From Bacteroidaceae bacterium (lineage in GTDB: Bacteria; Bacteroidota; Bacteroidia; Bacteroidales; Bacteroidaceae): a DNA stretch of 32,623 bases. How positions within the stretch are numbered: position 1 is the first letter of the stretch; each line of letters starts with the position of its first letter. The notes beneath the pieces are model-generated. The model searched no databases. It was not told the DNA's origin and worked only from the letters and a program-made list of their open reading frames with translations. Position numbers and translations under genes: made by a program. The DNA is taken from positions 1 to 32,623 of the forward strand of contig JAFXTO010000022.1 of the NCBI GenBank assembly GCA_017535725.1, written 5' to 3'. Positions 4,952-31,688 of the stretch are shown piece by piece.

Positions 4952-4958
4952 CTTTCTT

Positions 4959-6925: not shown

Positions 6926-6926
<1 letters not shown>
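4959..6926 (-). CDS. Polytopic inner-membrane protein with soluble helical C-terminal half, function unknown
   Basis: 655 aa. About eight hydrophobic segments lie in the N-terminal half: near residues 5-24, 74-94, 99-118, 131-150, 165-191, 224-240, 277-293 and 305-325. Residues about 335-655 are soluble, helix-rich and contain repeated pairs such as DWERVLTIARDG and WTVARKYLDLLKKTRFHRQW that suggest TPR-like helices. From memory it resembles a Bacteroidetes membrane family labelled DUF6057; I have not verified this. Its ATG overlaps the beta-galactosidase stop by one base (TAATG), implying translational coupling, and the CXXCH propeller lipoprotein gene follows by 67 nt. Odd feature: residues about 195-225, between predicted membrane segments 5 and 6, are encoded by REP-like DNA and read as a polar Ser-, Thr- and Gly-rich loop. 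Confidence 0.8.
6254..6344. repeat. Degenerate inverted pair of REP-like elements in frame within a coding region
   Basis: 6254-6280 (beginning GCCCCTTTCCGACCGTCCCC) and 6317-6344 (beginning CCTCCTCCCCACAGGGGG) resemble, in opposite orientation, the intergenic palindrome at 4916-4951. Together they encode a loop of about 30 polar residues between two membrane segments of the 655-aa protein. The likeness was judged by eye and is imperfect. Confidence 0.45.
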
Positions 6927-10141
<3,215 letters not shown>

Positions 10142-10143: not shown

Positions 10144-10168
10144 AGTATCTTTTTGGCGCAAAGATACT
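10144..10168. promoter_or_regulatory. Perfect 9-bp inverted repeat across the beta-galactosidase -7 box, possible operator
   Basis: Arms AGTATCTTT (10144-10152) and AAAGATACT (10160-10168) are separated by 7 nt. The right arm contains most of the -7 element and the left arm covers the expected transcription start and early leader. It could be a repressor site or a 5'-end hairpin in the mRNA. Confidence 0.5.
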
Positions 10169-10283: not shown

Positions 10284-10322
10284 AAAAATGTCCGCCAAAG
10301 TTGCGGAAACCTTGGCGGACAT
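10284..10322 (-). terminator. Rho-independent terminator of the SusCD/FAS1 operon
   Basis: On the minus strand ATGTCCGCCAA (10322-10312) pairs with TTGGCGGACAT (10298-10288), an 11-bp GC-rich stem with a 13-nt loop, followed at once by a T run. It starts 27 nt after the stop of the last susD-like gene and lies before the beta-galactosidase promoter, so it separates the two transcription units. Confidence 0.88.
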
Positions 10323-10349
10323 ATTTAAATGGAAGGATAGAATCAGAGA

Positions 10350-12638
10350 TTACTGCGGCAATTTGAAGTACCAATTGCTCTCGTTCTGCAGACGGCCGTA
10401 GAGACCAGCATCAAGAGAGCCTGAACGGGCTGCCACACGCTTGGCGAATTCATCGGCAGAACCGCAGAGGCGGCTGTAGCAGACGAGGTCGAAGAAGCGG
10501 TTGCCCTCGAAGGCGGTCTCCAAAGCCAGTTCATCGAGGATGAGGTGGCCAATAGCCTTCTGCACCTTATCGAGGTTGGCATCCTGATAGATTTCCTTCT
10601 TCGTCAACGTAGGCTGACCATCAGCGGCTAACATCTTGTTGATCTGGTCGACGTAATTGAAGACCGTGTTGCGCTCATTGGGCATGATACGTCCGCAACC
10701 ACGAGTGTGAATACCCGTAGTCATGTTGTCACCATTGAAATTATAAGTGGCAAACGAGCTTCCAATCTCGCGTTCTGTGCCACCCACCGCATACGTGTAG
10801 GCTGTTCCGGTTCCACGGAGATAGCCTTTGTCTGTCTGGAAGGTGAAGAACGGATAGCTCTGGGCTTCGCGTGTCTCGCGACGGCCAATGTGGTCGCATA
10901 CGAGGTCTTCAGGAACGATGGACTCTGCAGGCCACTCGTTGTAGGACAGGGTGTCCTTTCCGACAGTAATACCGTTGGTGGTGAGGTATGCCTCGTACTC
11001 AGTTGCCTTGGTAGCCTCATCCTCGCTGAAGACAACACCCTCATTGATTGCCCGCTGAACGTAGGCGTCCTTGAGTGCGTCTGCTGAAGAGAAGAAGGAA
11101 GAGTCACCATTCTCGACTGCGAAGTAACGGAGTTCATCGGGCTGATACAAGGTGTTGAGGGTGGGAACCCACGCACTGTTACCACAGAGACCACTCTTGA
11201 GCACAGCAAAAGCGTAGCCGGGGAAACCTGCACCGTTAAGGGCTTCGGCAAAGCGCAGCCAGATGCTACCCTTACGATAGATGATAGGATAGGCAGTGGG
11301 GAAGGTAATGGTGGTAACGCGACCTACGTAAGCTCTGCCACCGCTTGATCCCACGGCATAACCCGAACCGTGGTTCTGCTTCATGACGAAGTTCACGGTC
11401 TCGGAATCGTCTGAGTCGGGGTCAGGACGATTGTTGGTCGTCATCTGGTAGCGAGCGTCGCCAGCACCGTTGATGACCTTGCAAACCTTGGTTGTAGAAG
11501 TACCGATGTAAGCCTCATAGTCCTGCGTGAGATTCAGGTTTTCGTATAACTTGGAGGCTCCAAGCTCGTGCTTGAAGTTTGCAGTCAGGCTTACAGCTAC
11601 GGTCGTAATGGTGTCCTCTGCATTCGTACGGACAGAAATCTCACTATCGAAGCCGAATAGCTGCTGGATGCCACGCTGTACACTACCGAAGAGTTTACTC
11701 ATGGAGCTGGGGATGACCGTGACAACTTCCTGCGATGCGGTCACTTCGGTCGTGGTATTGAACATTCCTGGCCAACCGGCTGTGCTGCCCAGCTCAAAAA
11801 TGTCCGTAATCCTGTCGCGTTCCAAGACGCCAAACATATTATTGGTCTGAATGACGCCACCCCACTCCGAGTTGAGATAGTCATAGTAATGCTGTGCTGC
11901 CTTACGGTAGGAGTCTTTGTCGCCTCCCTTGGCACGGAGCAGATAGATGTCACCAAGAACCAAGTTCTGGGGGAACAGACAGAGAGTGGAGTGTACCAGG
12001 TTCTGGTAGTTACCATAGTTAGGATAATCCACACCGCGAACCTCCTCCAGCTTCTGGACGATGGGTGAATCTGCGAAGTCGTCGATGGTTACGAAACGGT
12101 TCGCATTATGCACGGCTTCGATTTCCTCGGTGGAGAGGACGGGAGTGTCCACGTAAGGAACACGTTGATAGGTGAGCAGCAGCTGCAGGTAGACCCACGC
12201 CCGAATGCTTACCACCTGTGAATACTCCTTAATCATCACGCTACGGTCTGTACCCGTCTTGCGGAGTGTGTCACACTGAGCAATGTAGGCATTGCAGGAG
12301 TTGATGATGTGGTAGAAGTCGCTGGCCTTGAGATAGCGGCAAGCGCCATCTGCTGTGGCGACATCGTCGGTCTGGAAATCGAGGATTGCGTGGATGGAGT
12401 CACTGATGTATTCCGTTCCGCTGACGAGGTCGCCACGACATTCGCCGAGAATGACGTAGCGTTCTGCTACGGACTGAAGACTCTTCAGGATACCCCAGTA
12501 GGAGTAGAGGGTATCTGCGGCTACTTGGTCTATTTCATCATTGCGATCCATATCTGGTGTCAGCATATCCTCACAAGACGAGAGGCTGAAGCTGGTGACC
12601 AACGCAAGAAGTACGATATAAATGATGTTCTTTTTCAT
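10350..12638 (-). CDS. SusD/RagB-family outer-membrane lipoprotein (second pair)
   Basis: 762 aa, long for SusD (usually 500-650). The signal sequence ends at lipobox Cys22 (LSS-CED). The N-terminal half has the TPR-like helices of the family (AWVYLQLLLTYQRVPYVDTPV, then FPQNLVLGDIYLLRAKGGD). The C-terminal hallmark LILDELALETAFEGNRFFDLVCYSRL and the ending NWYFKLPQ are present. SusD proteins sit on the cell surface as a hinged lid over their SusC barrel and help capture the ligand. It follows its SusC partner by 12 nt and is the last gene of the operon. Extra length lies in the middle (about residues 280-470), where it carries long insertions of unknown role. The ligand is unknown. Confidence 0.93.
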   Translation of the reverse strand: MKKNIIYIVLLALVTSFSLSSCEDMLTPDMDRNDEIDQVAADTLYSYWGILKSLQSVAERYVILGECRGDLVSGTEYISDSIHAILDFQTDDVATADGACRYLKASDFYHIINSCNAYIAQCDTLRKTGTDRSVMIKEYSQVVSIRAWVYLQLLLTYQRVPYVDTPVLSTEEIEAVHNANRFVTIDDFADSPIVQKLEEVRGVDYPNYGNYQNLVHSTLCLFPQNLVLGDIYLLRAKGGDKDSYRKAAQHYYDYLNSEWGGVIQTNNMFGVLERDRITDIFELGSTAGWPGMFNTTTEVTASQEVVTVIPSSMSKLFGSVQRGIQQLFGFDSEISVRTNAEDTITTVAVSLTANFKHELGASKLYENLNLTQDYEAYIGTSTTKVCKVINGAGDARYQMTTNNRPDPDSDDSETVNFVMKQNHGSGYAVGSSGGRAYVGRVTTITFPTAYPIIYRKGSIWLRFAEALNGAGFPGYAFAVLKSGLCGNSAWVPTLNTLYQPDELRYFAVENGDSSFFSSADALKDAYVQRAINEGVVFSEDEATKATEYEAYLTTNGITVGKDTLSYNEWPAESIVPEDLVCDHIGRRETREAQSYPFFTFQTDKGYLRGTGTAYTYAVGGTEREIGSSFATYNFNGDNMTTGIHTRGCGRIMPNERNTVFNYVDQINKMLAADGQPTLTKKEIYQDANLDKVQKAIGHLILDELALETAFEGNRFFDLVCYSRLCGSADEFAKRVAARSGSLDAGLYGRLQNESNWYFKLPQ

Positions 12639-12650
12639 ATTGCTACGCGA

Positions 12651-16079: not shown

Positions 16080-16112
16080 ATCTTCAATTTTTTTAGAGGT
16101 CAGTGTGATACA

Positions 16113-18095
16113 TTATTCATCTACAGCCCTGAAAATAATCCTGTCAATGCAGAAACTGCTGCTGTAACCCTTCTTCTGGTCATTGGCGTTAGCGCTGCAT
16201 TGCAGTGTCAAGGTGGGATAGGAACGTGTCAGATTCTTGTAGGAGTACTCTGACTTATAGGTAATCAGGTCTCCGGTCTTTGTGTCCTTGAGCCAGATGG
16301 TGTCAACACGCTCTCCGTTGTATTCGAAGGGCTTGTTCCTGAAATCTGTCGAGCTCTCCGTAATCTTTCCGTTCTTGTCGCCTTTCAGTTGATTGATAGT
16401 GACTGTGAATTTGTGGATTTTCTTGGTACCGGCAACGATAACATCGTTGTTGTAATAGTAGAAGTCCGGCACCATAACGAATCCAATCTTGTACTTCACT
16501 CCACTCATGATCTCGTGATTCATGTCGTTGTCACGAATCTTGAACTGAGCTTTACAGTCGTCACCAGTCGTGGAGAACATGTAGAAGAAGTCCTCACTGA
16601 CACTTCCGAGCAGGCTGTCGGTGACCAGTGCGCAATTGGCACTGGGGAACGAGTGGTATTCAGCCTCTGTCAGTCCCAGTTCCTTCTGCTGGAAAATGGC
16701 GTAACCATTTATCTTCACCTCCACATCCATGGATTTGAAGGGCTTGAAGAAGTTCCAGTTGTTGACGGGATAGACCAGACCGTTGGATACTGCTATGGGA
16801 GAAGCATTGTCCGTGAGAAGAGCCTTCACGTTCGCTACAGAGTCCACGACCCACTGGGTAGTGGGGATGGTGTCGTGCATGACAGTGACCTCCTTGGCTA
16901 TAGTAAAGGTGTCTAAGCGTGTGTTGAACATCTTGAACATCGAGGCGTCATTGAAGTCCTGTGCGTTCCAGTATCCAGGATGCTGCGGAGTACGCGGTTG
17001 CTGACGGATATTGAAGAGCAACATGGAGGCAAGATCCATACTCATGGCCAAGCGGGAGATAGAGTCCGGATTGACGGTAAAGGTTTCCTTGTTGTCAGCG
17101 TTACTGTCCTGCTCGTATTTATTAGGATAGGTGGAGGCGTAGTTGTAATACTTCTTATAGGCATCGATAGCATTCCTCCAAGCTTCATTCGTCGGAAGTA
17201 TCATTCCCCAGACACTGTCCTCCTGTTCGATGTTTCCGCTGAATCCCTTCAGGTCCATGAGCCATTCCACGCCAGTTGTAGACCCAGTGAAATAATTGTA
17301 CAGGGTGTTGCTGCGGAGGTACGTACTATCGACGTAAATGGGGTTACCATTCTCATCAGAACCATTCTCCACACTGAGACTGGGCAAGAAATAGATGGTG
17401 TCATGGGAAATCAGCCACGTGCGCAGGGAATCGAACTGTTCGGGATGCTGCTTGATGTACTGATAGATGTTGTAGCGGAAAGGCAACTGTTTGGGGATGA
17501 TGTGCAATGTTCCGTTCACAGCAGGAATATTGTATTTCTCCATGGAGATGAAGAGGCTGGCATTCTCGCTGGTCAGGGGGCTGCCTGAGATGATTTTCTG
17601 GTCGCGGCTGAAATATGCCTTCTTACCATTGACCATCACCAGTTTCTCATTACCTGTTCCCGTGGCGGTGTAGCGGTTCTTGGTGATGTGGTTTCCCACG
17701 ATGCGCAGATAGACATCGTATGGATCCGTGTCACACTTCCCAAGGAGTTCCTGGTATTCCTCGTCGGAGATGGCGTCGTTCGTGGGAGCGAAGACGGTCA
17801 GGATCTGCGTGCCGTTGAGTACGTCTTTGAAGGTGTAGGGCGTACCGTCGTCCTTGCGGACCAGGTGTGTCTCGTCCTTGAAGTAGGGCGTTTTCTCCAC
17901 GAGCGTTGCGAACTTGCTCAGCTGTTGAGGATTGGCTTGTATCTGCTCCCAGATGGTCTGGGTGGCATTGGCACCTTCCTCACCGGCGTTGTCGCGAACG
18001 TCAAAGTGGTCATCCGTGCAGGCTGGTATGGCTGCCACGACGGTGGCCACCATGAAAGCTGCCTGAATGAATCTGATTACTTTCTTTTTTGCCAT
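16113..18095 (-). CDS. Fasciclin (FAS1) domain lipoprotein, two modules
   Basis: 660 aa. The lipobox gives Cys26 (IPA-CTDD), and the acidic residues after it resemble the Bacteroidetes surface-export signal. FAS1 module 1 spans about 45-200 (LTVFAPTNDAISDEEY near 100, closing with AVNGTLHIIPKQL). Module 2 spans about 208-455 (WGMILPTNEAWRNAI near 297, closing with SNGLVYPVNNW). The last 200 residues look like a beta-rich domain ending FCIDRIIFRAVDE. FAS1 modules are known extracellular adhesion or binding folds. The gene lies between another FAS1 gene (20 nt gap) and the second susC (33 nt), so it may serve that second transporter. It is clearly different from its two neighbours. The bound ligand is unknown. 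Confidence 0.83.
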   Translation of the reverse strand: MAKKKVIRFIQAAFMVATVVAAIPACTDDHFDVRDNAGEEGANATQTIWEQIQANPQQLSKFATLVEKTPYFKDETHLVRKDDGTPYTFKDVLNGTQILTVFAPTNDAISDEEYQELLGKCDTDPYDVYLRIVGNHITKNRYTATGTGNEKLVMVNGKKAYFSRDQKIISGSPLTSENASLFISMEKYNIPAVNGTLHIIPKQLPFRYNIYQYIKQHPEQFDSLRTWLISHDTIYFLPSLSVENGSDENGNPIYVDSTYLRSNTLYNYFTGSTTGVEWLMDLKGFSGNIEQEDSVWGMILPTNEAWRNAIDAYKKYYNYASTYPNKYEQDSNADNKETFTVNPDSISRLAMSMDLASMLLFNIRQQPRTPQHPGYWNAQDFNDASMFKMFNTRLDTFTIAKEVTVMHDTIPTTQWVVDSVANVKALLTDNASPIAVSNGLVYPVNNWNFFKPFKSMDVEVKINGYAIFQQKELGLTEAEYHSFPSANCALVTDSLLGSVSEDFFYMFSTTGDDCKAQFKIRDNDMNHEIMSGVKYKIGFVMVPDFYYYNNDVIVAGTKKIHKFTVTINQLKGDKNGKITESSTDFRNKPFEYNGERVDTIWLKDTKTGDLITYKSEYSYKNLTRSYPTLTLQCSANANDQKKGYSSSFCIDRIIFRAVDE

Positions 18096-18115
18096 ATTGT
18101 TGTAATTTTAAGATT

Positions 18116-20338
18116 TTACCAAATGTCTTCGCCCTCAACGGGATTGTCATACACTTCTTTGGCGCACCATTCGAGGAAGTCCATGTAGAACTGTTTGTCG
18201 GGTGATTCCTGCACAGACTTGAACTTGATGTAGTACTGCTTGTCGGGATCCATATCCTGGCTGACGATGATGCGTCGAATCTCACGGGACTGAGCACGGG
18301 AAGAATTGCTGATACCCGTACTGCCAAGGTAGCTGAAGTTGGCCGGGCCCTTCATGAATCCATTGTTACGCATGTGCTTGTCGATATCATCGTTGGCACC
18401 GGGATCACTGGTGTCTGGTTCCCATCCCACAGGTGAGTTGGGGTTGTCATCACTACCGCTGGTTCCATTGTACCAAATCGTACCGCCCATACGAATATCC
18501 AAAGGAATACCCATAGCAGGCAGGGCGTTGGGGTTGTCACCGAAGTAGACCTGAGCCATACCACGGGCGCTGACCACCTGGATGCCGTAGCGGATTTCGT
18601 AGTGTCCGGCCTTTGGTACGGGAGGCAGCTTCATCGTGAACTCGTACTGACCGACGATGTTCAGCTCCGTTCCCTGATAGTTCAGCCAGTTGTGATGCCA
18701 ACCAGAGAGGTAGTAGAACTTGGAGCCTTCCATGATGTCGATGTTATCGAAGTACTTGTGGTCCGTGGGGAAGAGGTAGTTGCGGTCGTAGGTGTAGTCG
18801 CGCAAGTCACGGATATCATTGTTCATGAACTCAGGGAACATGGCAGTGAAATCGATACGGATGCGCTCGCCCATGAGCTGGTTGCGGACGTTGTCCGTAC
18901 AGACAAGCACCTTCTTGATAGGATGGATGTATCCATTGATGACGGATACGGAAGCGGTGTCTCCACCTACATTGTTTTCCACCCGGATACCCTCGTTCTC
19001 ATTAGCTGTCATGGCGTTTCCTCTGATATCCTTGAACATACCACTCTCATGGTTGTTGTTCTCATAGCCGTTGTCGGTGGAGAACTCTCCACGTCCGTTC
19101 AGCAGTTTCGGGAAACGGTTGATGTACACGCCCTTGCTCTCCTTACTCTCGTAGAGTTTCATGAGGCGACGCTTGCCCAATGTGCAGAAGTATTCCATGA
19201 CGGGGATGGTCAATTGCGGATTCTTCTGTGTGGCATCGTAGCCGAGTTCATTCCAGTGAACGACCAACCTGTCGTGGCTGAGTTTCTCCGGCAGGATGTG
19301 ATAGGTAGTGAACTGGTTGATGATGTTGTTCTCGTCTGTGTAGTTGTCGTCCGTCGTTGCATCAGGGTATGCTTGTCTGTCGACAAGGTACTTCTTGACG
19401 TCCTCTATCGTGATTTCATCAGCAGGCTTTCCTATTTCAGATTCCCATACGTCATCCGTTTCGGCAAAGATGGTGAATCCGTAGTAGCGATGCTCTGGAA
19501 GCTCGATTTTCGTGCTCTTCTCAGTACCGAACCTGTCTGCGGGATCAATGACTTCCACTTGTTTCGTGAGCCATAGTTCTCTCCATACGGGGTCTTCCTT
19601 CTTGCTGAGGGTGTCGTCAAGTCCACAGGCGAGAATCAGCTTGGCCATCACCACATACTTCATTTCGCCTTCCTTGGCCCACTGTAGGAGCATATCCGAC
19701 AGGGTTTCGTTGCTGGGTGCGATGACTTCCAGCATCTCATGGATATATCCGTTGATGGCCTCGATGTCACGATGCTGCATGTGAATGGGAGACGTGCCAT
19801 TGATGTAGATACTGTCTTTGTTGACAGAACCACGAATGACGCTGAGCTTACGCTCGTTCATGTTCGACACCTCGAAGTTGCCATTATCTTCCGAGGGGAA
19901 GTTACCAGTGTCGTATGCGGTGACGCCCTTGGCTTCTCCACTGTTGATAATACTGTTGTAGACAATGACCTTACGGATGGAGTCGAGGTCCTTCTCGTTA
20001 CGGAATCCGTTCCAGTCTGGGGTATCGATAATCCCCTTGCGATAGAGGGTATCGAGGTAGAGGTGGATGGCAGAGTCGTTCGGTGCAAAACAGGTGTATG
20101 CTCCACGTGCCGAGAGCAACTGCTTCACCGTAGAGGAAGACACCTCACTGATGGGTACTTCACCCAGCAACTTCACGTACTCCGAGAATTGCTCATTTTC
20201 CTCGAGGTAACTGAGCACCGTATATTCCGTAAAGGTATAGCGATTGCTCATGTCGATTTCTTCCGTGCAGGCTACCAGTCCACAGGCGATGACCAGCAAG
20301 GCCAACACGTGATGTTTGAAATACAATAGTTGTTTCAT
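18116..20338 (-). CDS. Fasciclin (FAS1) domain lipoprotein, paralogue 2 of a tandem pair
   Basis: 740 aa. Lipobox Cys24 is followed by TEE. Module 1 spans about 40-207 (YTCFAPNDSAIHLYLDTL near 81, closing with INGYIHEMLEVIAP). Module 2 spans about 215-480 (GFTIFAETDDVWESEIG near 287, the FAS1 H-box-like TTYHILPEKLS near 345, closing with INGYIHPIKKVL). A C-terminal beta-sandwich-like domain spans about 500-740, with KAGHYEIRYGIQVVSA, YYIKFKSVQ and the ending EDIW. It shares long identical blocks with the upstream gene, e.g. CTEEIDMSNRYTFTE and GQYEFTMKLPPVPKAGHYE, so the two arose by tandem duplication. Position after susD and lipoprotein nature suggest a surface ligand-binding role analogous to SusE/SusF; this is inference. 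Confidence 0.85.
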   Translation of the reverse strand: MKQLLYFKHHVLALLVIACGLVACTEEIDMSNRYTFTEYTVLSYLEENEQFSEYVKLLGEVPISEVSSSTVKQLLSARGAYTCFAPNDSAIHLYLDTLYRKGIIDTPDWNGFRNEKDLDSIRKVIVYNSIINSGEAKGVTAYDTGNFPSEDNGNFEVSNMNERKLSVIRGSVNKDSIYINGTSPIHMQHRDIEAINGYIHEMLEVIAPSNETLSDMLLQWAKEGEMKYVVMAKLILACGLDDTLSKKEDPVWRELWLTKQVEVIDPADRFGTEKSTKIELPEHRYYGFTIFAETDDVWESEIGKPADEITIEDVKKYLVDRQAYPDATTDDNYTDENNIINQFTTYHILPEKLSHDRLVVHWNELGYDATQKNPQLTIPVMEYFCTLGKRRLMKLYESKESKGVYINRFPKLLNGRGEFSTDNGYENNNHESGMFKDIRGNAMTANENEGIRVENNVGGDTASVSVINGYIHPIKKVLVCTDNVRNQLMGERIRIDFTAMFPEFMNNDIRDLRDYTYDRNYLFPTDHKYFDNIDIMEGSKFYYLSGWHHNWLNYQGTELNIVGQYEFTMKLPPVPKAGHYEIRYGIQVVSARGMAQVYFGDNPNALPAMGIPLDIRMGGTIWYNGTSGSDDNPNSPVGWEPDTSDPGANDDIDKHMRNNGFMKGPANFSYLGSTGISNSSRAQSREIRRIIVSQDMDPDKQYYIKFKSVQESPDKQFYMDFLEWCAKEVYDNPVEGEDIW

Positions 20339-20369
20339 ATTATTCTTTTTTATTTTCTCAAATAGTATG

Positions 20370-22580: not shown

Positions 22581-22607
22581 ATTTTGTCAAATGTGGAACT
22601 GTTGTAT

Positions 22608-24545
22608 TTATTTCTCGCGATTCCAGACTGGGTTCTGCTGGAGTTGGCCATGGTTGGCGCTAAGCTCGCGATAGTAGATGGGGCAGTAGAGTCCGTAGCG
22701 GTTCTTGATACGTGTCTTGTACACAGGAATCATGTTGGATTCTGCATTTCCGAGGAAGTCGTCAATCATCTTGCGGACGCCCATGGTTCCGTCGAGGTAC
22801 TGAGGCTCGCGTGGGTCGTAGAGGATGACGATTTCGTTGTCCTTCGCGTTGGTCTTTTCATAAACGGGATTTCCATTTTCGTCATAGACGACGGCACCGC
22901 TCTCATCCGTGCTATACTTAATCTTATTCATGGAATAGCGTTCTGCATAGCGTGCGAGGTCGAACCAGCGGCGACCTTCTCCGAGGAATTCAATCTGGCG
23001 CTCATACATGAGTGTCTTCATATAAGACTCCCTGCTTCCTGCGCCCTCGAATACGGCTTCGGCGTTGGTACCAGTTTCCACGTTGCTGCGCTTGTGGATG
23101 GCGTTGATGATGTTCTTGGCGGCCACCAGGTTTTCATCCGTCTTATTGGCGCTGGTGGGAGCTTTGGCAATCATGGCCTCAGCCATCATCAGCATGACAT
23201 CGGGCTGACGGTAGATAATCCAGTTGCGGTAGCTTCCGGTCTGTGGATAAATCCACACTTCCTTGTCGGACTTGCGATATACGAATTCGCAGTTATTCCA
23301 TTTCAGACAAGCTCTCTGCTCCTTGTCAGAGGGAGCGGCAGCCTCTGTGTTTCCGGAAGTGCTATACCAAGGATTGCAGCTGTACCACGTGCGGCAGTCC
23401 TTCTTGGCTTTGTCGGAGGCGCTGGAGGTTCCATAGACATTGAGGATGCCTTCGCTGACCATGAAGTGGGTGTTGTTGCTCTGTCCGTAGAAGTCATAAA
23501 TCCAGTCGCTCTTGAGGTCATCCTGGTGGAACTGGAGAGCGAACATGGTTTCCATACCCTGTGATTCCATACCACGATAGAAAGCGTAGTCATAGCTGTC
23601 CACGGTTGGTAAACTGTTCTCCTGGCTGTAGTCCTGACGCATTTCCTCGTTGGACACCAGCAGGGCGTTGCTAAGACCGCTTCCGAAGTCCGAGCGACGG
23701 ATGCGGGTGCTGCCGAACGTGCTGGAATTCATATTGTTGACTTCAGCAAGGTAGTCCAGAGACTTCTGTCCTGCCCAGATGACGCTGTCGCAGTCCTGAT
23801 CGATGATCGTCTTGTCGAAGTCACGTCCCTCACGCAGGGCACTGCGCCAGAGGTACATATCCGCCAGCAGGGCATAGATGGCGGTGTTGGTCATCAAGCC
23901 ACGGGTGTCAGTGGGGTCGTCGAAGCGGTTACGCGCCTGACCTGCCAAGGGGCGGACGTCGTGGATAAGGGTGTCGAGGACATCCAGCTGATTGACGAAG
24001 GGGAAGTCCATGACCTCCTCATCGGAGTTGATGACCTGTGTGCTGTAGGGAATATCCTTGAATGCACGAATGAGGTAGAAGTAGTTCAAGGCTCGCAGAG
24101 CGGTGATTTCCGCCTTCATCTCCTTCCATTCCGTGGAGGTGAACTGAGGATCCTTGGCGAGCACTTCCTCTCCGTGCTGGAGCACCTTATTACAATAGTT
24201 AATGGTGGTGTAGACAGCTCCCCAGTCATACTGGGACATGGTGCTGTCGAGCTGGGCAGCGCGGATGTTCTGGAAGACCTCACGACTTCCCTGCTGGGAC
24301 GTCTGGTTCGCAATGACGTAGTTATCGGAACGGATATCGCCCCAGATGACCAGCTTGCTGAGGTTGGCAGCCATCTGCTTGTAGGCAGCGTAGCGCACGC
24401 CTTCGAGGTCGTTCTTGTCCTCCCAGAAGTCTTCTTCGACGATACGGTCCTGGGGGTAGAGTGTCAACCAGTCTGTGCAGGAGGTGGCCCCGAGTGCCAT
24501 GAGGCACACGAGTGCTATGTGGTTAAAAAACTTAATTCTTTTCAT
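22608..24545 (-). CDS. SusD/RagB-family outer-membrane lipoprotein (first pair)
   Basis: 645 aa. Signal sequence with lipobox Cys23 (ATS-CTDW). Canonical SusD features are present: the N-terminal LTLYPQDRIVEEDFWEDKNDLEGV, the helix pair AEITALRALNYFYLIRAFKDIPY, the C-terminal YERQIEFLGEGRRWFDLARY and the terminal LQQNPVWNREK. Acts as surface lid and ligand-capture partner of the SusC encoded 12 nt upstream. It is followed after 27 nt by the FAS1 tandem pair. This is a more typical SusD than the one at the operon's end, and the two are not close copies, so the operon was not made by simple duplication of one SusCD pair. Confidence 0.96.
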   Translation of the reverse strand: MKRIKFFNHIALVCLMALGATSCTDWLTLYPQDRIVEEDFWEDKNDLEGVRYAAYKQMAANLSKLVIWGDIRSDNYVIANQTSQQGSREVFQNIRAAQLDSTMSQYDWGAVYTTINYCNKVLQHGEEVLAKDPQFTSTEWKEMKAEITALRALNYFYLIRAFKDIPYSTQVINSDEEVMDFPFVNQLDVLDTLIHDVRPLAGQARNRFDDPTDTRGLMTNTAIYALLADMYLWRSALREGRDFDKTIIDQDCDSVIWAGQKSLDYLAEVNNMNSSTFGSTRIRRSDFGSGLSNALLVSNEEMRQDYSQENSLPTVDSYDYAFYRGMESQGMETMFALQFHQDDLKSDWIYDFYGQSNNTHFMVSEGILNVYGTSSASDKAKKDCRTWYSCNPWYSTSGNTEAAAPSDKEQRACLKWNNCEFVYRKSDKEVWIYPQTGSYRNWIIYRQPDVMLMMAEAMIAKAPTSANKTDENLVAAKNIINAIHKRSNVETGTNAEAVFEGAGSRESYMKTLMYERQIEFLGEGRRWFDLARYAERYSMNKIKYSTDESGAVVYDENGNPVYEKTNAKDNEIVILYDPREPQYLDGTMGVRKMIDDFLGNAESNMIPVYKTRIKNRYGLYCPIYYRELSANHGQLQQNPVWNREK

Positions 24546-24557
24546 ATCGGCCTTGTT

Positions 24558-27500
24558 TTAGAATCCAAGATTAATACTTGCTGTGAACGAACGCGTACGT
24601 GGTGTGCGGTTGTTGTCCTGGCTGACGGCATATCCCTGCGGGCTGACGTCAGGATCCACGCCGGTGTACTTGCTCCAGCACCAGAGGTTGTTGACGGATG
24701 CATAGAGCTTGAGGTTGCGGATACCGAACTTCTTCAACTTCTTGGGGTCGAAGTCGTAGCTGAGCTGTATGTACTGCAAGCGGAGGTAGTCACCCTTCTC
24801 TACGTAGCGGTCGCTGGGGAGGGAGTTGTAGGTGGAATATCCTCCGTCGTTGTTCATGGCACGCGGCACCACGGTCTCGTCGCCGTTCTTACGCCAGCGC
24901 CATGTGGTAGCGAAGCTCTGGTTGGTATTGCCGGTCATACTCTCGAGGTTACGACGTGCGATGTTGACGATGTCGTTTCCGATACGGAAGTTGAAACCGG
25001 TGACGAGTTGCAGGCGCTCGTACTTCAGGGTGAAGCCGAAACCACCATTGCACTTCGGGTTGGAGTTGCCGAGGTACACCATGTCGTAGCGGTCAATCTG
25101 TCCGTCGTTGTTGATATCCTCGTAGATGGCATCACCACCCTGGAACTGGTAGCGGTAACTCTCGTTGTAGCAGTAGTACATGGGCATGGGGTTGCCTTGC
25201 TTGTCGGTGAGCATGTTGCCTGCGGCATCAAAGGCGATTGGGCAGGAAGCCACGTCACCACGACGGAGAGCTGCAGCAGCTGTGTTGATGGGATTGCCAT
25301 GAGCGTCATAACCTGTTCCGACGCCCCATTCGATACCGCGATCCTGAGCCTGACGCCAGCTGACGCCATTCTGGTCCACTTCGGCATAACCGTAGGAGTT
25401 GATAGAAGAAATGGTGAAGCCGTTGTGGTCGTAGTCGTACTTGTAAACGCCCTTGAACTTCAGGCCGTAGATGGAGCCGAGTGCGTTGCCAATCTGCACG
25501 CGCTGGTGGTAGCTGAGGTTGTACTTGCCGTCGATGTAACCGGGCTGGTTGTTCTCATTACCGTTGAGTCCTTCGAGGATAAGTGCATCCATCTCCTCGA
25601 CCTCGTTGAAGTTCTGAGCGACGTTGGCACGCACCTTCATCTGGAACTTGCCGACCTTGGCGAACCATCCGCTGTGGAAGTTCAAGTCCCAACCCTTGTT
25701 GCGCATGATACCTGCATTCACCTTGTCGAGTGCACTGAAGCCGTTGGCAGAGGCGATACGCATGTTGTTCATGATGAGGTCGGTGGTCTTGTGGTCGTAG
25801 ATATCGAGCTCAAACTGGAGGAGGTCGTCGAACAATCCGAGGTTGAAGCCCCAGTTGATCTTACGTGTCTTCTCCCACTGGATGAGTCGGAGCGAGAGGT
25901 TCTCGGGACGTACGACGGTGTGGCCGTTGTAGTAACCGTTCTGGCTATACTTATTATATTGGTTATAGCCACCGCCACCGGTATTACCCGTGACACCCCA
26001 CGTGGGACGGAAGGCCAACATGCTCAGCCAGCTGCGGGACCAGTCCATGAACTTCTCGTCGATGATGTTCCAACGGGCACCCACGAACGGGAAGTAGCCG
26101 AACTTGCTGCCGGCACCGAATGCGGTGCTACCATCGGCACGGAGACTGGCGTCGATGTTGTACTTACTCTTATAAGAAAGGTGGACTTGTCCGAAGAAGC
26201 TGGTGTTACGCCATTCGTTGTTGGAAGCTCCGGCAGCATCCAGCAGAGCCACGACGGTGGGATCCGTGATGCCATTGGGCACGTTCCAGAGGCCGGTGTT
26301 CTGGCGGCTGGAGGTTCCGCTGTAGAGTTCCCATCGTGCGAGCACGCTGGCGCTGAAGTCCTCGTTCCTAAACTTGGGATAGAACTGCAGGTCGTGGCGC
26401 GTGGTGAACTCCAAGCTCTTGTACTCGCTGTTGCTCACGGCATTACGCTGGTTGCCGTGGTCGGCGTTGTCCCATCTCAGAGGATAGTCTCCTCCGAACT
26501 GCCACTCCATCGTGTGGAGTTCTGAGGGAATGTATTCGTCGTTGGAGGTGTTGTAGATATTGAGTTGTACGTCGCCCTTATAGTTCAGCTGGGTGTGTTC
26601 GTCGTCCTTGCCGAGGAACTTGTACTCGATGTTGAACTGCGGGGTGAGGTTGTACTGGCGCTCCTTGTTCCAGGCATTCATGGCACGTGCGACGGGGTTT
26701 CCGTTCATAAACAGGCTTCGCAGTTGCCAGCTGGTATGCTGTCCGTCGTTCTCGATACCTGATGCGCTGTTACCAGAAATATCGGCTGCCATCGGAAGCA
26801 TGTTGAAGTAGCGTCCTGTCGGGTTGTTCTGAGCGTCAACCTCATAGATAGCCATATTCGGCATGGCGTTGTAGGCGCGGGAGAGGATGTCGTTACCGTA
26901 GTTCTTGTGGTTGGTGGTGAACGTCAGGTTGATATTGGACTGGAACTTGATGCGGTCGCTGACCCAGTAGTCGAGGGCGGTGGCGGTGGTGAATCGGTCG
27001 AGCTTCTGTCCGATGATGGTACCCGCGGACTTGTCGTAACCGGCGCTGACACGGAAGGTAGCCTTCTCGCCACCACCGGAGAGGGTGACGTACCATTTGT
27101 GTTCCTTACCGAACTGCGTCACGGCATCCACCCAGTCGGTGTTGCGGTTGAAGTGGTTGTAGATGTAGGGCTTCTCCATGTTGTAGTCCAGCTCAAGGAT
27201 GCTGGTAGCTTTCTGCTGGGGGTTGTAGTAGGACTCCTTCAGCATCATGGTGTATCCGTCGCCATCGAGCATCTTGTAGCCATCGGGCTGCCAGGTGCCG
27301 TTGAAGCGGTAGGAGAAGGTGACATTGGTAGGACCACGGTGACCGCGGCGGAGCTTGATTTCGATGACACCGTTGGCGCCACGGCTACCCCACTTGGCGG
27401 TGCTGGCGTCCTTGAGGACCTCGATGCTCTCGATGTCTTCAGGGTTGACGTTCAGCAGGGTGGAGAACTGTTCTTCGTTATCCATCTCCTCGAAGTTGAT

Positions 27501-28118
27501 GGTCTGTGCGTCCTCGGGGAGCTCGAAGATGTGGTCGTTGACAACAATGAGGGGCTGTGCATTACCGTTAATGGTGGAGGTACCACGCAGACGCATGGTA
27601 GTACCGGCACCCAGGTTACCGGAGTTCTGCACGATATCCAGACCTGCGATTTGACCTTGCAGTGCCTGGTCCACGGATTCGAAGGCCATACCCTCCATCT
27701 CGTCCATGCTGAAGGTCTGCGTAGCTCCCGCCAACTCGCGGACAGGGATGCTGAGTCCTCCGGACTGTTGTTTCTTCTTGGCGGTCTTGACAACTTCCTT
27801 CATCTGCTTGGTGTTGTCGGAGAGGGTGACCTTGAATACGGTGCGGCTTCCGATGACCTGTGACCAGGGCTTCAGACCCATGCAGGTGATATAGAGGGTG
27901 TTGTTGGGATCCTTGATGTTCAGGGTGAAGTTACCGTTCATATCGGTGACCGTGTGGCTGACGATACGGTTGTTCTTGTCGCGCTCTGCGACGTTGGCAC
28001 CTGGAACCACGTCAATATCATCCGATACGGTACCTGAGATGCGGCGCTGTGCGCTGACGCTGGTTGCCGTGAAGCAGAGAACCCACAGCAGTATCAGTTT
28101 GAAAATCTTATCTTTCAT
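24558..28118 (-). CDS. SusC/RagA-family TonB-dependent outer-membrane transporter (first pair)
   Basis: 1186 aa. Signal peptide cut near VSA (residue 23), then a carboxypeptidase-regulatory-like domain (about 27-105; RRISGTVSDDIDVVPGANV, TDMNGNFTLNI). The plug (about 125-265) carries the standard signatures DQALQGQIAGLDIVQNSGN, RLRGTSTINGNAQPLIVVND and IESIEVLKDASTAKWGSRG. The barrel follows and ends RSFTASINLGF with a C-terminal Phe, the usual outer-membrane assembly signal. It imports a ligand with TonB/ExbBD energy in complex with the SusD encoded downstream. Its ATG lies inside the end of the preceding FAS1 gene (11-nt overlap), which points to translational coupling. No STN domain is seen. 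Confidence 0.97.
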   Translation of the reverse strand: MKDKIFKLILLWVLCFTATSVSAQRRISGTVSDDIDVVPGANVAERDKNNRIVSHTVTDMNGNFTLNIKDPNNTLYITCMGLKPWSQVIGSRTVFKVTLSDNTKQMKEVVKTAKKKQQSGGLSIPVRELAGATQTFSMDEMEGMAFESVDQALQGQIAGLDIVQNSGNLGAGTTMRLRGTSTINGNAQPLIVVNDHIFELPEDAQTINFEEMDNEEQFSTLLNVNPEDIESIEVLKDASTAKWGSRGANGVIEIKLRRGHRGPTNVTFSYRFNGTWQPDGYKMLDGDGYTMMLKESYYNPQQKATSILELDYNMEKPYIYNHFNRNTDWVDAVTQFGKEHKWYVTLSGGGEKATFRVSAGYDKSAGTIIGQKLDRFTTATALDYWVSDRIKFQSNINLTFTTNHKNYGNDILSRAYNAMPNMAIYEVDAQNNPTGRYFNMLPMAADISGNSASGIENDGQHTSWQLRSLFMNGNPVARAMNAWNKERQYNLTPQFNIEYKFLGKDDEHTQLNYKGDVQLNIYNTSNDEYIPSELHTMEWQFGGDYPLRWDNADHGNQRNAVSNSEYKSLEFTTRHDLQFYPKFRNEDFSASVLARWELYSGTSSRQNTGLWNVPNGITDPTVVALLDAAGASNNEWRNTSFFGQVHLSYKSKYNIDASLRADGSTAFGAGSKFGYFPFVGARWNIIDEKFMDWSRSWLSMLAFRPTWGVTGNTGGGGYNQYNKYSQNGYYNGHTVVRPENLSLRLIQWEKTRKINWGFNLGLFDDLLQFELDIYDHKTTDLIMNNMRIASANGFSALDKVNAGIMRNKGWDLNFHSGWFAKVGKFQMKVRANVAQNFNEVEEMDALILEGLNGNENNQPGYIDGKYNLSYHQRVQIGNALGSIYGLKFKGVYKYDYDHNGFTISSINSYGYAEVDQNGVSWRQAQDRGIEWGVGTGYDAHGNPINTAAAALRRGDVASCPIAFDAAGNMLTDKQGNPMPMYYCYNESYRYQFQGGDAIYEDINNDGQIDRYDMVYLGNSNPKCNGGFGFTLKYERLQLVTGFNFRIGNDIVNIARRNLESMTGNTNQSFATTWRWRKNGDETVVPRAMNNDGGYSTYNSLPSDRYVEKGDYLRLQYIQLSYDFDPKKLKKFGIRNLKLYASVNNLWCWSKYTGVDPDVSPQGYAVSQDNNRTPRTRSFTASINLGF

Positions 28119-31100
28119 AGTGCTTCATGTTTTGGATATCGTTGGGGGTTGCAAACTGCTCCAGATAGGCTTTGCAAGCGCTCTCGCTGGTGAAGTCCGG
28201 ATAGACGTACTCTCCGTCGGTGCCCTTAGAGAGGCTGGTGTGGTTGAGTACTCCGGGAATCTGATGGATGACGGCGAAGCTGGAACCACTGATGGTGATG
28301 TTGTTCATCGTGTTCTGGTTCGTGGGCGTCTGGGGTTTGTTGTTTCGATAGCAGATGATGTCACGTGCCATGATGTTGTTGACATCAGTGACGGTGAGTT
28401 CCGGTCCGCCGTAGTTGTCTCGGACTACGAGCTTGGTATCTCCTCCTTGCTTCACGCGCTTGCAGAGCACCTTGACGAAGACTCCGAGGTCGCGGTCATA
28501 GCTGGAGGTGACATACTCGGCTTCCGAACGCTCGCTCTTGTCGACGAAGATACTGTTGTCGAGGAAGTGGCCGCGGATGAAGTTATTGAGGAAGGTAATC
28601 TTAGCCTGCAAGCGGAGGACGTCCTTCTTCTGGACGAAGTAGTCTTCCAGCTTGGAAGCCGAGACGATGATAGTGTCGTTGTAGGTGGAGTCGTTGCCGT
28701 GGATGTCCTTGGCGGTGGCCACGTTGACATAGAAGTATTCCTTTTCACCTTCGAGGTCAATGATGGAATCACAGATATCCTTGTACTTGGGCAGCGAATA
28801 GTAGTCGGCCTTGATGCTCTCCCAGGTGGGAAGTCCGTGGTCGATGGCCTTCTGAATGGCTTCGTTGGTGGGAACGAGGATGGTGTAACGGTAGTTGTTG
28901 AAGAACTGCACGTTGTAGTCCACGCCACCGCCGTTGCCCATCTTGGATGTTGCGTTGACGAAGGTGTAGTATTTCAGCAGGGCGCGTGTCTTGTTGTCGC
29001 CCTTGAGGGATGCGTTGACGAGCTGCGAAGCCTCCAGCATAGAGTCGCTGGGCTGTGTGAGTTCAAAGAACTTGGAGAACTGGCTGGTCTCCTCGCCCTC
29101 GTTCTTCTCGGTGAGGATGCCATAGACGCTCCTGGATGCGGGGATGATGGGACCGTCGTTGAGCAGGAGAGTCAGACCGTTCTTCTTGTCGTACTTCTCT
29201 GCCACGGTGAGTTCCAGGGTGCCAGGGTCGCCGTCGGTGATGCCGTAGCGCTCGTTCTCCAGCTGGTAGCCGCCCTGCACCTTAATAATATTATTACGGT
29301 CAGACGGGTCGCGGATGACCTTGATGGCAGAACCGTTCTTGGCGATGTAGTACTGGTCATCGGTATCATAGATGGGGTTGGTGCCATCGTGCACGATGGT
29401 GTGGCTCTCCAGGATATCCTTCAGACGGTTGACGACTTCCTCATCACCGATGGTCTCTGTACGTCCGTAGGTGTCGTCGCCGGCGTTGCTGCCCAGTGAC
29501 GGGTCACGCTTGGCGGTGGCGGGATTGAACTTCCAGAGGGTCTTGGTGAAGGGCAGGCCGTTCTTGCCGCCGGTGTAGTCCAGCACGAGCACACGAGGCT
29601 TCTGGCTGGTGAAGCTGACCGGGTCATAGTAGTTCAGCATGGCCTTGTCGCTGGGGAGGAAGAACGTGAAGGTGGACTTCATAGCCTTGAGGTATGCGAA
29701 GTAGTTGATGTGCATACGGTCCTGGCTCTCGACGAAGCCGTTGTAGATAGCCCACTTCATGATAAGGTTCTTCTTGCTGATGTATGCAGGGGCTGCAACA
29801 GAGGCGAAGTCGGCAGGTGAGTACACCTTATTCATAATATATAAGGCGCCGTTGTTGGCGAGCAGACAGGTGTCGATATGTCCACCGTCGCGGCTGAGCT
29901 TGTTGTCGTAGATGCCATTGATGTCGTCATCGTAGAAGATATCGTCGCGGGCATCGTCACGCAGCTTGGTCATCTTGCTGGGCACGGAACCAGTGAAGGT
30001 GGGGAACATGATGACGTTCACCAGAGCCTGAATGGTGGAGAGGGGGATGTCGTCAATCTTCTGGAACAGCTTCTCGTAGTCAGCGTCGGATTCAGGAGTC
30101 TTGGGCAGCATCGTGGTCTGGTCGGTGGCGTAGGTCTCGATGAGATCCCATCCTTCCTGTCCGGGCTGGAAGTAGTTCCAGAAGGCCTGGTCGCTGGGAA
30201 CGAACATGGCAGCCATGTCCGGACGCTCGTCGGTGGCGTCCTCAGCGTAGAATCCATTCCATCCCGGATCGAACTTCAGGGCCACTTCACCATAGCTGTC
30301 CTCGAACTTGTTACCCTTGCTGTCCCAGATCTGTACGGTCTTGCCGGGGCCAAGCTTGGAGTAGTAGTGCTTGGTATAGATGGCCTCGATGGGGTTGTCC
30401 TTGTGGATGTCGTTGTATGCCTGCGTGACGGCTTTGTTCAGGTAGGGGAATGAAAAGCGCTCGAGCACGTGGCTGAAGATGCGGGTGTTACCGTTGGTGC
30501 GAATCATCTCTGCCAGGTTGGGACGCGGGACAAGCACCTTTTCCGTGATGTTCACGTATCCGTTCTCTGCCACCTTGTCCTTGGCCAGCACCTTGGCGTC
30601 GTAGATGTGAACATCGTCGGTGGCACGCTCACGTCCCATGAAGATGGCGAAGTCCTCATCGCGCACGGCATTGTTGGACATGTGCTCTGCGGTGAAGTGC
30701 AGCATCATGTTGGCGGTGGAGTCCATGACGAGGTAGATGCCCTTGTTGTTACCCTTGGGTCCGAACTCGGTCCAGTAGTTCTTCTCCGGCACGAATGCCT
30801 TCTTGCCGATGAAGTTACCGTTCTCGTCGTAGACATTCTCCTCGGGGTACTCCTTGTCAATATTGTATGCGAAGGGGAGGTCTTCGGGAGCTATGTAGGT
30901 GATGGTGTCCGTGAGTTCCACGTCGGTGAAGCGTCGCATGTACTCACCACGTGTGGGAGCATCAGTGCCTCGTCCGTCGCTGCTGGCGAGGTTCTCCATG
31001 ACGATGGCATTGTTGAGCATGCTGGTGTGGATGAGCAACTTCTTCTGAGCAGGGGTGAGGTTGCTGTAGCTGGTGGCATTGTGCCAGGGGTTGTTGGCGG

Positions 31101-31461
31101 GGAGCTTGGCATTGTCCTTGAAGAACTGCTCCCAAGCATCGTCACCGGCTACGAATACGGTCTTGGAACCCGTTCGGCTCAACACCTCGGTCAGGGGGCG
31201 TACCTTGTACTCACCCGTGGAATCCGTGAGGTTCACGTCCTTGTCAGCCAGCAGCTGCAAGTAGGTGTTGAACGTGTGGTGGGTTCCATTGTCATCTGTC
31301 AGGCCTTGCTGCAAACTTTCGTAGATGCTGGCGTTCAGCCACGACGGCTTTTCGTCGTCGAGCTTGAAATCATCCGTACATGCCCACGCAAGCCCACAAA
31401 CGGCCATCACACTGAACGCGCGCGTAAAGTGCTTACCAAATGTGCTTAATTGGCTTTTCAT
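28108..31461 (-). CDS. Large FAS1 (fasciclin) domain lipoprotein with about four modules, first gene of operon
   Basis: 1117 aa from the ATG at 31461. Upstream in-frame ATGs at 31467 and 31530 exist, but 31461 gives a compact signal sequence (KSQLSTFGKHFTRAFS, then a hydrophobic stretch) and lipobox Cys28 (AWA-CTDD). After PSWLNASIYESLQQ, a typical FAS1 lipoprotein start, there are four FAS1 core strands: TVFVAGDDAWEQFF (about 101), MFVPSDQAFWNYF (about 419), FFLPSDKAMLNYY (about 598) and ILVPTNEAIQKAI (about 859). The spacing of 180-320 residues exceeds a minimal FAS1 domain (about 140), so the modules carry large insertions. Acidic residues after the Cys suggest surface display. Its stop codon lies beyond the susC start, so the two are probably coupled in translation. 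Role in binding or adhesion is inferred. Confidence 0.83.
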   Translation of the reverse strand: MKSQLSTFGKHFTRAFSVMAVCGLAWACTDDFKLDDEKPSWLNASIYESLQQGLTDDNGTHHTFNTYLQLLADKDVNLTDSTGEYKVRPLTEVLSRTGSKTVFVAGDDAWEQFFKDNAKLPANNPWHNATSYSNLTPAQKKLLIHTSMLNNAIVMENLASSDGRGTDAPTRGEYMRRFTDVELTDTITYIAPEDLPFAYNIDKEYPEENVYDENGNFIGKKAFVPEKNYWTEFGPKGNNKGIYLVMDSTANMMLHFTAEHMSNNAVRDEDFAIFMGRERATDDVHIYDAKVLAKDKVAENGYVNITEKVLVPRPNLAEMIRTNGNTRIFSHVLERFSFPYLNKAVTQAYNDIHKDNPIEAIYTKHYYSKLGPGKTVQIWDSKGNKFEDSYGEVALKFDPGWNGFYAEDATDERPDMAAMFVPSDQAFWNYFQPGQEGWDLIETYATDQTTMLPKTPESDADYEKLFQKIDDIPLSTIQALVNVIMFPTFTGSVPSKMTKLRDDARDDIFYDDDINGIYDNKLSRDGGHIDTCLLANNGALYIMNKVYSPADFASVAAPAYISKKNLIMKWAIYNGFVESQDRMHINYFAYLKAMKSTFTFFLPSDKAMLNYYDPVSFTSQKPRVLVLDYTGGKNGLPFTKTLWKFNPATAKRDPSLGSNAGDDTYGRTETIGDEEVVNRLKDILESHTIVHDGTNPIYDTDDQYYIAKNGSAIKVIRDPSDRNNIIKVQGGYQLENERYGITDGDPGTLELTVAEKYDKKNGLTLLLNDGPIIPASRSVYGILTEKNEGEETSQFSKFFELTQPSDSMLEASQLVNASLKGDNKTRALLKYYTFVNATSKMGNGGGVDYNVQFFNNYRYTILVPTNEAIQKAIDHGLPTWESIKADYYSLPKYKDICDSIIDLEGEKEYFYVNVATAKDIHGNDSTYNDTIIVSASKLEDYFVQKKDVLRLQAKITFLNNFIRGHFLDNSIFVDKSERSEAEYVTSSYDRDLGVFVKVLCKRVKQGGDTKLVVRDNYGGPELTVTDVNNIMARDIICYRNNKPQTPTNQNTMNNITISGSSFAVIHQIPGVLNHTSLSKGTDGEYVYPDFTSESACKAYLEQFATPNDIQNMKHYER

Positions 31462-31557: not shown

Positions 31558-31583
31558 AAAAGCCGTACAAATTTAAGGCTTTT
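31558..31583. other. Stem-loop in the leader region of the FAS1/SusCD operon
   Basis: AAAAGCC (31558-31564) can pair with GGCTTTT (31577-31583) around a 12-nt loop. On the plus strand the T-run (to 31586) makes it look like a terminator, but no plus-strand gene precedes it. On the minus strand it overlaps the candidate -7 box, so it may be fortuitous. A second near-palindrome, AAGCCTTTAAAGGCCTT, lies at 31531-31547. Confidence 0.35.
31568..31575 (-). promoter_or_regulatory. Candidate -7 box for the FAS1/SusCD operon
   Basis: TAAATTTG on the minus strand fits TAnnTTTG. No convincing -33 TTTG lies 19-21 nt upstream, so this is a weak call. It would give a leader of roughly 100 nt before the ATG at 31461. 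Confidence 0.3.
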
Positions 31584-31653
31584 TTTAATTCGATGTACTC
31601 TCCTCCCCCCATTATTTCGCCTCCGTTAAGAATTATTAACAAAACGAGTGTTT

Positions 31654-31688
31654 CAAACGTTAAACAAAAACCTCCCCGCCGCGACCTC
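31654..31688. repeat. 35-bp direct repeat, copy 1
   Basis: Matches 31796-31830 at 33 of 35 positions, with an offset of 142 bp. The shared core is AAAAACCTCCCCGCCGCG followed by ACCTC. Confidence 0.85.

What the first reader, a model, noticed from the sequence alone, without database searches (positions are those of the whole stretch)
10284..31461. One operon with two SusCD pairs and four fasciclin-domain lipoproteins
Eight co-directional genes with junctions of -11 to +33 nt encode FAS1, SusC, SusD, FAS1, FAS1, FAS1, SusC, SusD. Standard Sus-like loci have one or two SusCD pairs plus SGBPs and carbohydrate-active enzymes; here the binding-protein slots are all FAS1 adhesion modules and there is no enzyme. 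I infer a dedicated surface capture and import machine, possibly two transporters sharing a set of FAS1 binders.
Basis: partly seen in the sequence, partly recalled or inferred. Interest (0 to 1): 0.75.

Follow-up and report, generated by a model that had tools for sequence, protein, structure and literature searches.

The report
Twin nutrient importers with FAS1 lipoproteins
A rumen-type bacterium carries one gene block for two outer-membrane nutrient importers plus adhesion-type (FAS1) surface proteins, and the same block in the same order recurs in many related bacteria, so it looks like an old, conserved nutrient-capture machine whose cargo is still unknown.

Summary
Eight minus-strand genes (FAS1, SusC, SusD, FAS1, FAS1, FAS1, SusC, SusD; junctions -11 to +33 nt) look like one transcription unit, with a promoter box before the first gene and a strong terminator after the last. 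The order is not private to this genome: 80 of 80 named relatives have FAS1-SusC in order; 73 hold both SusC genes, 7 loci end too early to tell, and none examined has only one. Seven-gene versions occur in other Bacteroidales families and in two families of the class outside the order; here the middle FAS1 gene (F23) is duplicated. "No enzyme" holds for the transcript only: a GH2 beta-galactosidase unit starts 226 nt downstream, and many relatives have GH128- or GH43-type genes upstream. New: one clade of the genus carries 6-19 scattered F23 genes, some beside glycosidases and none beside SusCD in 48 loci read, in genomes with only 4-8 SusC genes; several of these operons lack F23. Best reading: a conserved, probably glycan, import hub with FAS1 lipoproteins as surface binders, F23 being exchangeable. 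No model of structure, binding, transport or RNA data could be obtained, and the F23 expansion is a single evolutionary event.

The parts
31568..31575 (-). TAnnTTTG box (Bacteroidales -7 element, motif recalled) upstream of F1: likely operon promoter
   Evidence: the box lies within -150..+60 of the F1 ORF start in 67 of 78 loci against 26 of 440 for the six other genes. The stricter two-box pattern has no match in the window
28108..31461 (-). F1: FAS1 lipoprotein, 1117 aa, lipobox plus acidic residues (CTDD)
24558..28118 (-). SusC_A: TonB-linked outer-membrane transporter
22608..24545 (-). SusD_A lipoprotein
20370..22580 (-). F2: FAS1 lipoprotein of the F23 family, ends EDIW
18116..20338 (-). 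F3: FAS1 lipoprotein of the F23 family, tandem duplicate of F2 (55% identity), ends EDIW
16113..18095 (-). F4: FAS1 lipoprotein, 660 aa
12651..16079 (-). SusC_B: TonB-linked outer-membrane transporter
10350..12638 (-). SusD_B: divergent SusD-type lipoprotein
   Evidence: (just under the Pfam cut-off)
10288..10322 (-). Terminator-like stem-loop closing the operon
   Evidence: 3 terminator-like sites in 501 bases against 0.6 in shuffles; this is the longest stem
10159..10166 (-). TAnnTTTG box upstream of GH2: likely promoter of a separate downstream unit
6926..10123 (-). GH2 beta-galactosidase (LacZ type), 226 nt downstream; possible enzymatic partner, not part of the transcript
   Evidence: also next to the locus in L158 and L284

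Best explanation
The eight genes are one transcription unit for a conserved outer-membrane capture-and-import system. Two SusCD transporters (SusC_A/D_A and SusC_B/D_B) are made together with FAS1-module surface lipoproteins that take the place of the usual surface glycan-binding proteins. F1 and F4 stand before the two SusCD pairs as constant partners. The F23 slot (F2 and F3 here) is the changeable part: lipid-anchored at its N-terminus, FAS1 module(s), and a C-terminal region ending in Glu-Asp-x-Trp. I infer that F23 proteins catch ligand, most likely oligo- or polysaccharide, and hand it to the SusCD pair(s), perhaps docking through the tail, and that enzymes encoded elsewhere do the cutting. 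Shown here: gene content, order and its conservation, promoter and terminator-like signals, lipoprotein signals, correlated divergence, scattered F23 copies in one clade. Inferred: surface location, glycan as cargo, docking, sharing of transporters.
For: Order recurs: 11 of 20 family loci, 80 of 80 named loci for F1-SusC_A and 73 with both SusC, 18 of 20 further loci, 15 of 15 loci around weak F1 hits, with SusC_B-SusD_B in 13 of 13 that could be extended. Promoter boxes before F1 only, terminator. Genes of the locus diverge in step (rho 0.76-0.92). All 49 distinct lone F23 proteins carry the lipid Cys plus acidic residues and the E-D/N-x-W end. At least 10 of 51 same-strand neighbours of lone F23 are glycosidases against at least 3 of 51 other ORFs of the same loci (capped tables). 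SusC_A's nearest solved relatives are SusC homologues (8aa4, 5t3r; glycan cargo recalled).
Against: No binding, transport, RNA or structure evidence. GH genes beside the locus differ between lineages and many loci have none, so no common substrate appears. Most neighbours of lone F23 are not glycosidases, and the comparison 10 vs 3 of 51 is small and from tables capped at 25 families. Lone F23 expansion is one clade, so its link to low SusC number is one event. The EDxW end is variable in other families and absent in 15 distant F23, so it cannot be the docking signal everywhere. FAS1 could be purely adhesive.
Confidence: 0.55

Rival explanations
1. An ordinary single-substrate polysaccharide utilization locus: both SusCD pairs import fragments of one glycan (galactose-containing in this genome, given the GH2 next door), the FAS1 proteins are its binding proteins, and scattered F23 genes are paralogues with other jobs.
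For: GH2 unit 226 nt downstream; GH128-type and GH43-like families upstream of F1 in part of the loci; two SusCD pairs for one glycan are known from the F. johnsoniae chitin locus (PMC5127042, passages); a FAS1 gene is drawn in a flavobacterial cellulose/hemicellulose PUL (PMC4891872, one section).
Against: Neighbouring enzymes vary while the operon stays constant; no sugar-sensing regulator or enzyme in the transcript; operon F23 is missing where scattered F23 are many.
Confidence: 0.25
2. The FAS1 proteins are adhesins (attachment to plant fibre, host or other cells) made together with, but not serving, the SusCD transporters.
For: FAS1 relatives in the PDB are mostly adhesion proteins such as periostin and TGFBI; F proteins change faster than SusC.
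Against: Strict gene order with both SusCD pairs over many families and in-step divergence argue for a working link.
Confidence: 0.1
3. A peptide or protein importer of the RagAB kind.
For: S9 dipeptidyl-peptidase in the downstream set; an M6-peptidase-type family in 10 fetched loci (one member tested by Pfam); RagA among the PDB relatives of SusC_A.
Against: RagA is a more distant match (E 1e-64) than two other SusC homologues (E 3e-132, 4e-98); lone F23 genes show glycosidase rather than peptidase neighbours in the tables seen.
Confidence: 0.08

Closest known systems
Chitin utilization locus (ChiUL) of Flavobacterium johnsoniae (PMC5127042; passages read)
   Same: Two SusC/D-like pairs in one locus; the SusD-like proteins differ in sequence and binding.
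   Different: ChiUL has four enzymes and a two-component regulator and, in the passages seen, no FAS1 proteins; here there are FAS1 lipoproteins and no enzyme or regulator in the transcript.
Cellulose/hemicellulose-like PUL of Gramella portivictoriae and other Flavobacteriaceae (PMC4891872; section 19 read)
   Same: A FAS1-domain gene is drawn in a SusD-containing locus.
   Different: From the legend the locus has GH5, GH9, GH26, a regulator and a symporter; the gene order of this finding is not described there.
Sus and the levan/dextran SusCD complexes of Bacteroides thetaiotaomicron (recalled; PDB chains 5t3r and 8aa4)
   Same: SusCD transporter with surface lipoproteins that bind cargo.
   Different: One SusCD pair each and non-FAS1 binding proteins plus surface enzymes (recalled).
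RagAB of Porphyromonas gingivalis (recalled; PDB 6sli)
   Same: SusCD-type transporter.
   Different: One pair, peptide cargo, no FAS1 partners (recalled).

Membership tests
SusC/RagA family TonB-linked outer-membrane protein (TIGR04056) | Score over NCBI's cut-off over the full length | tested here: met
   SusC_A 615 and SusC_B 571 bits, cut-off 368
SusD/RagB family (PF07980) | Score over Pfam's cut-off | tested here: inconclusive
   SusD_A 82.1 (met), SusD_B 21.6 against 23.1 (just missed); the SusD_B family profile finds PDB SusD homologues at E 1.2e-8
FAS1 / fasciclin domain (PF02469) | Score over Pfam's cut-off | tested here: met
   F1 36.8, F2 37.4, F3 34.3, F4 33.7, cut-off 22; NCBIfam has no family for them
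FAS1 / fasciclin domain (PF02469) | FAS1 fold | not testable with these tools
Polysaccharide utilization locus | SusCD pair(s) | tested here: met
   Two pairs
Polysaccharide utilization locus | Carbohydrate-active enzyme in the locus | tested here: inconclusive
   None in the predicted transcript; GH2 226 nt downstream in a likely separate unit
Polysaccharide utilization locus | Sugar-sensing regulator | tested here: not met
   None among the 14 window ORFs scanned; the contig ends near the operon, so one further away is not excluded
Surface glycan-binding protein (SGBP) | Lipoprotein with surface-export type acidic residues after Cys | tested here: met
   Alignments; 49 of 49 lone F23. The export signal rule is recalled
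Surface glycan-binding protein (SGBP) | Binds glycan and works with SusCD | not testable with these tools
   Needs binding and pull-down experiments

The most novel reading that the evidence does not exclude
A hub-and-adaptor import system: one conserved dual-SusCD operon serves many glycans because interchangeable FAS1 lipoproteins (F23), scattered through the genome, deliver their cargo in trans to the shared transporters and are recognised by a common C-terminal Glu-Asp-x-Trp end. In this rumen lineage that would replace the rule of one SusCD pair per glycan.
Probability: 0.3. Interest if true: 0.88.

Novelty: new variant of a known kind. Interest (0 to 1): 0.7.

Why it matters
SusCD systems are usually read as one pair per glycan with their own binding proteins and enzymes beside them. 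A widely conserved, slowly changing operon with two SusCD pairs and FAS1 partners points to a core import function that could be missed because FAS1 is annotated as adhesion. If scattered F23 proteins really share one transporter, glycan preferences of such rumen bacteria could not be predicted by counting SusCD pairs, and the EDxW end would mark the adaptors, which makes the idea directly testable.

Tried and rejected
Rejected: a gene order private to this genome. A recently acquired mobile PUL: many loci lie beside genes that look like miaA, lpxC, lpxA, lpxD, and distances of locus genes correlate with theirs. Separate transcription of each half: boxes cluster before F1. Haem or metal uptake: only a CxxCH motif seen by eye in the downstream PD40 protein. 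DUF6057/PD40 as fixed partners: they recur beside some loci, but DUF6057 occurs in 273 of 301 family genomes with 1-7 matches each, so the linkage is only suggestive.

Weak or against: the correlation of SusC number with lone F23 number (Spearman -0.81, permutation p 0.0006, 12 genomes) is not independent evidence, because the lone-F23 genomes are one clade. A strict TTTG-spacer-TAnnTTTG pattern gave no match, and TAnnTTTG as such is not enriched in the window (6 found, 9.4 expected). The lipobox pattern took a wrong Cys in part of the F1 rows, so its percentages are not used. mislabels two loci in its F23-absence list (it filters genes by position); the number 20 is taken from the adjacent pairs and the rows. 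No Rfam match in the window. Rows left out or treated by hand: partial F23 hits in G000, G010 and G060; a G078 copy between two SusC hits; G526, whose operon is broken over contigs, counted with one lone F23. In G060, two of the 19 lone F23 are on mirror-image contigs (C59/C67) and may be one gene, and one is interrupted by a stop. L242 was left out of the neighbour count as a near copy of L243.

Literature: ten searches of the open-access library gave no description of this operon; subscription papers are mostly not held. Seen as passages: PMC7661554, PMC2668756, PMC10199937, PMC5127042, PMC7768429, PMC4891872 (107, and section 19 whole in 112).
Full report
WHAT IS THERE. The window is contig C29 of a 2.9-Mb, 76%-complete genome in 72 contigs. 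The nearest named loci by SusC_A (84-94% identity) come from rumen Bacteroidales, Prevotellaceae or Bacteroidaceae genomes assembled from metagenomes (L058-L061). Eight minus-strand genes from 31461 down to 10350 encode F1 (FAS1), SusC_A, SusD_A, F2, F3, F4 (all FAS1), SusC_B, SusD_B with junctions -11, 12, 27, 31, 20, 33, 12 nt. F2 and F3 are tandem duplicates, 55% identical; their family is called F23 below.

TRANSCRIPTION UNIT. The box TAnnTTTG (Bacteroidales -7 element, recalled) occurs four times on the minus strand of the window: upstream of F1 (31568-31575), upstream of GH2 (10159-10166), and twice inside genes. Its number is no excess over shuffles, and a stricter two-box pattern has no match. 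Across the window plus the 80 named loci the box lies within -150..+60 of the F1 ORF start in 67 of 78 cases, against 4/82, 5/80, 1/64, 7/76, 0/74 and 9/64 for SusC_A, SusD_A, F23, F4, SusC_B and SusD_B, 26 of 440 in all. A 15-pair stem with a T-rich tail closes the operon at 10288-10322. The GH2-DUF6057-PD40-S9 genes downstream are therefore probably a separate unit.

CONSERVATION. Of 20 family loci fetched around F3 relatives, 11 show F1-SusC_A-SusD_A-F23-F4-SusC_B-SusD_B and 9 are lone F23 genes; a second, more divergent copy of the seven-gene locus lies in this genome (L006, contig C10). Of 80 named loci, 80 have F1 directly before SusC_A, 73 also have SusC_B, 7 end before it, and none of the assessable ones has one half only. 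In 20 of the 80 SusD_A is followed directly by F4 (no F23), and in 4 F23 is doubled as here. In L130 and L135 one role gene was lost to my crude ORF caller. Of 20 further loci, 18 carry the order as far as the sequence goes, including loci of seven other families of the order; three of the 18 lack F23; the exceptions are L152 and L153. Of 15 loci fetched around weak F1 hits, 15 show F1-SusC_A-SusD_A-F23 in order and 14 are long enough to show F4 next, weakly in L208. They come from further families of the order and from two families, f122 and f124, of the class outside the order. SusC_B and SusD_B follow in 13 of 13 that I extended; in one of these (L301, continuing L208) the gene in the F4 place is not recognised. 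F1 matches at E 1e-10 occur in 205 of 301 genomes of the family (a few of them weak), 21 of 295 of an order sample, 10 of these weak, and 7 of 296 of a phylum sample including this genome. So the locus is common in its family and patchy elsewhere.

HOW IT CHANGES. In the 80 named loci the median pairwise identity is 56% for SusC_A, 54% SusC_B, 40% F1, 37% F23, 35% SusD_A, 29% F4, and 53% for SusD_B with only 19 sequences; neighbouring genes that look like MiaA, LpxC, LpxA and LpxD give 61, 67, 71 and 63%. Distances of locus genes correlate with each other at rho 0.76-0.92 and with those neighbours at 0.55-0.86; the neighbours among themselves give 0.40-0.73 (pairs are not independent). The four neighbour families occur in 34, 30, 29 and 26 of 162 loci read, some of them from one genome (names recalled from the sequences, not tested by Pfam). 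This fits a unit inherited together, with steady transporters and faster-changing surface parts.

ENZYMES NEARBY. A LacZ-type GH2 follows after 226 nt; a GH2 also follows SusD_B in two same-genus genomes (L158; L284). A family with a Glyco_hydro_cc domain (GH128 type by recall; three members tested) occurs in 23 of the 162 loci, two of them of other families of the order, and a GH43-like family (one member tested) in 20, mostly just upstream of F1. Other loci have an M6-peptidase type gene, large CBM-like proteins or nothing recognisable. No common substrate follows.

THE F23 FAMILY. In 12 genomes of the genus, F23 matches number 2 to 20 per genome. Seven genomes have one SusCD-FAS1 locus and 6-19 lone F23 genes (G010 has a further F1 without SusCD); five have two loci and at most one lone F23. 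The operons of G010, G060, G485, G562 and also G443 lack F23. A SusC_A tree puts the lone-F23 genomes in one clade, inside which F23 left the operon more than once, or left and came back. SusC genes over the TIGR04056 cut-off number 4-8 in the seven and 6-14 in the five; in G060 and G485 two of only four belong to this locus. These are draft genomes, so counts are lower bounds. In 48 lone-F23 loci of 3-20 kb no SusC, SusD, F1 or F4 was recognised. Same-strand neighbours within 300 nt include at least 10 glycosidases among 51 (GH97 three times, GH92, GH123, GH127, GH43, GH27 type, fucosidase, GH2), against at least 3 among 51 drawn from 181 other ORFs of the same loci; the tables show 25 of 53 and 25 of 59 families. 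In 11 of 52 F23 rows the gene directly upstream codes for a 1400-1955-aa protein, mostly with a signal-like start (seen by eye) and, in three tested, no more than a weak LamG match in Pfam. All 49 distinct intact lone F23 have the lipid Cys followed by at least two acidic residues in five and end in E-D/N-x-W, 46 of them in EDIW; 79 of 92 F23 from the other loci end in E-D/N-x-aromatic; 0 of 119 F1, 109 F4, 116 SusD_A and 106 SusD_B do, nor does any other ORF over 200 aa of those loci. The end varies in other families and is missing from 15 distant F23, one of which is cut off.

MODULES. By profile-profile comparison F23 and F4 have a clear N-terminal FAS1 module and only a weak hint of a second; F1 has a clear C-terminal match (858-1072), part of an N-terminal one and weak hints between. 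By sequence, solved relatives of F1, F23 and F4 are FAS1 proteins, of SusC_A SusC homologues, of SusD_B SusD homologues. No structure model could be made.

VERDICT. A capture-and-import machine is the best reading, and glycan the likeliest cargo; the shared-transporter idea gains some support from the F23 pattern but stays inference. I file it as a new variant of the SusCD kind: dual SusCD loci (PMC5127042) and a FAS1 gene in a PUL (PMC4891872) are on record, but ten searches of the open-access library found no description of this operon.

Noticed in passing
window 770-10123 (-): Same-strand set GH2, DUF6057, PD40 lipoprotein with a CxxCH motif (by eye) and S9 peptidase. DUF6057 and PD40 also lie directly upstream of F1 in L148 and L149, and PD40 near a lone F23 in L039.
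   Followed up: partly
window 31649-31688 / 31791-31830 and 31880-31910 / 31916-31946: Two pairs of direct repeats (40 nt at 90%, 31 nt at 100%) between the HU-like gene and the operon promoter.
   Followed up: no
window 23961-26525 (+) and 6959-9235 (+): Long open frames (854 and 758 aa) antisense to SusC_A and GH2; taken as by-products of codon usage, not tested.
   Followed up: no
window 32056-32559 (-): HU-HIG domain protein with a run of Glu at its end, upstream of the operon.
   Followed up: no
L152 1040-8294: F4, F1 and F23 type genes in a row without SusC or SusD in the 20-kb stretch: a FAS1-only cluster.
   Followed up: no
L148 2736-9100: Three F23 genes in tandem in one operon, with ends unlike EDxW.
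   Followed up: no
L249 249-6116, L251 9020-14350, L272 8209-12480 and others: Family of 1400-1955-aa proteins, many directly upstream of lone F23 genes, most with a C-terminal end that resembles type IX secretion tails (by eye); almost no Pfam match.
   Followed up: partly
L079: F1 and F4 each appear as two neighbouring ORFs, possibly frameshifts or assembly errors.
   Followed up: no
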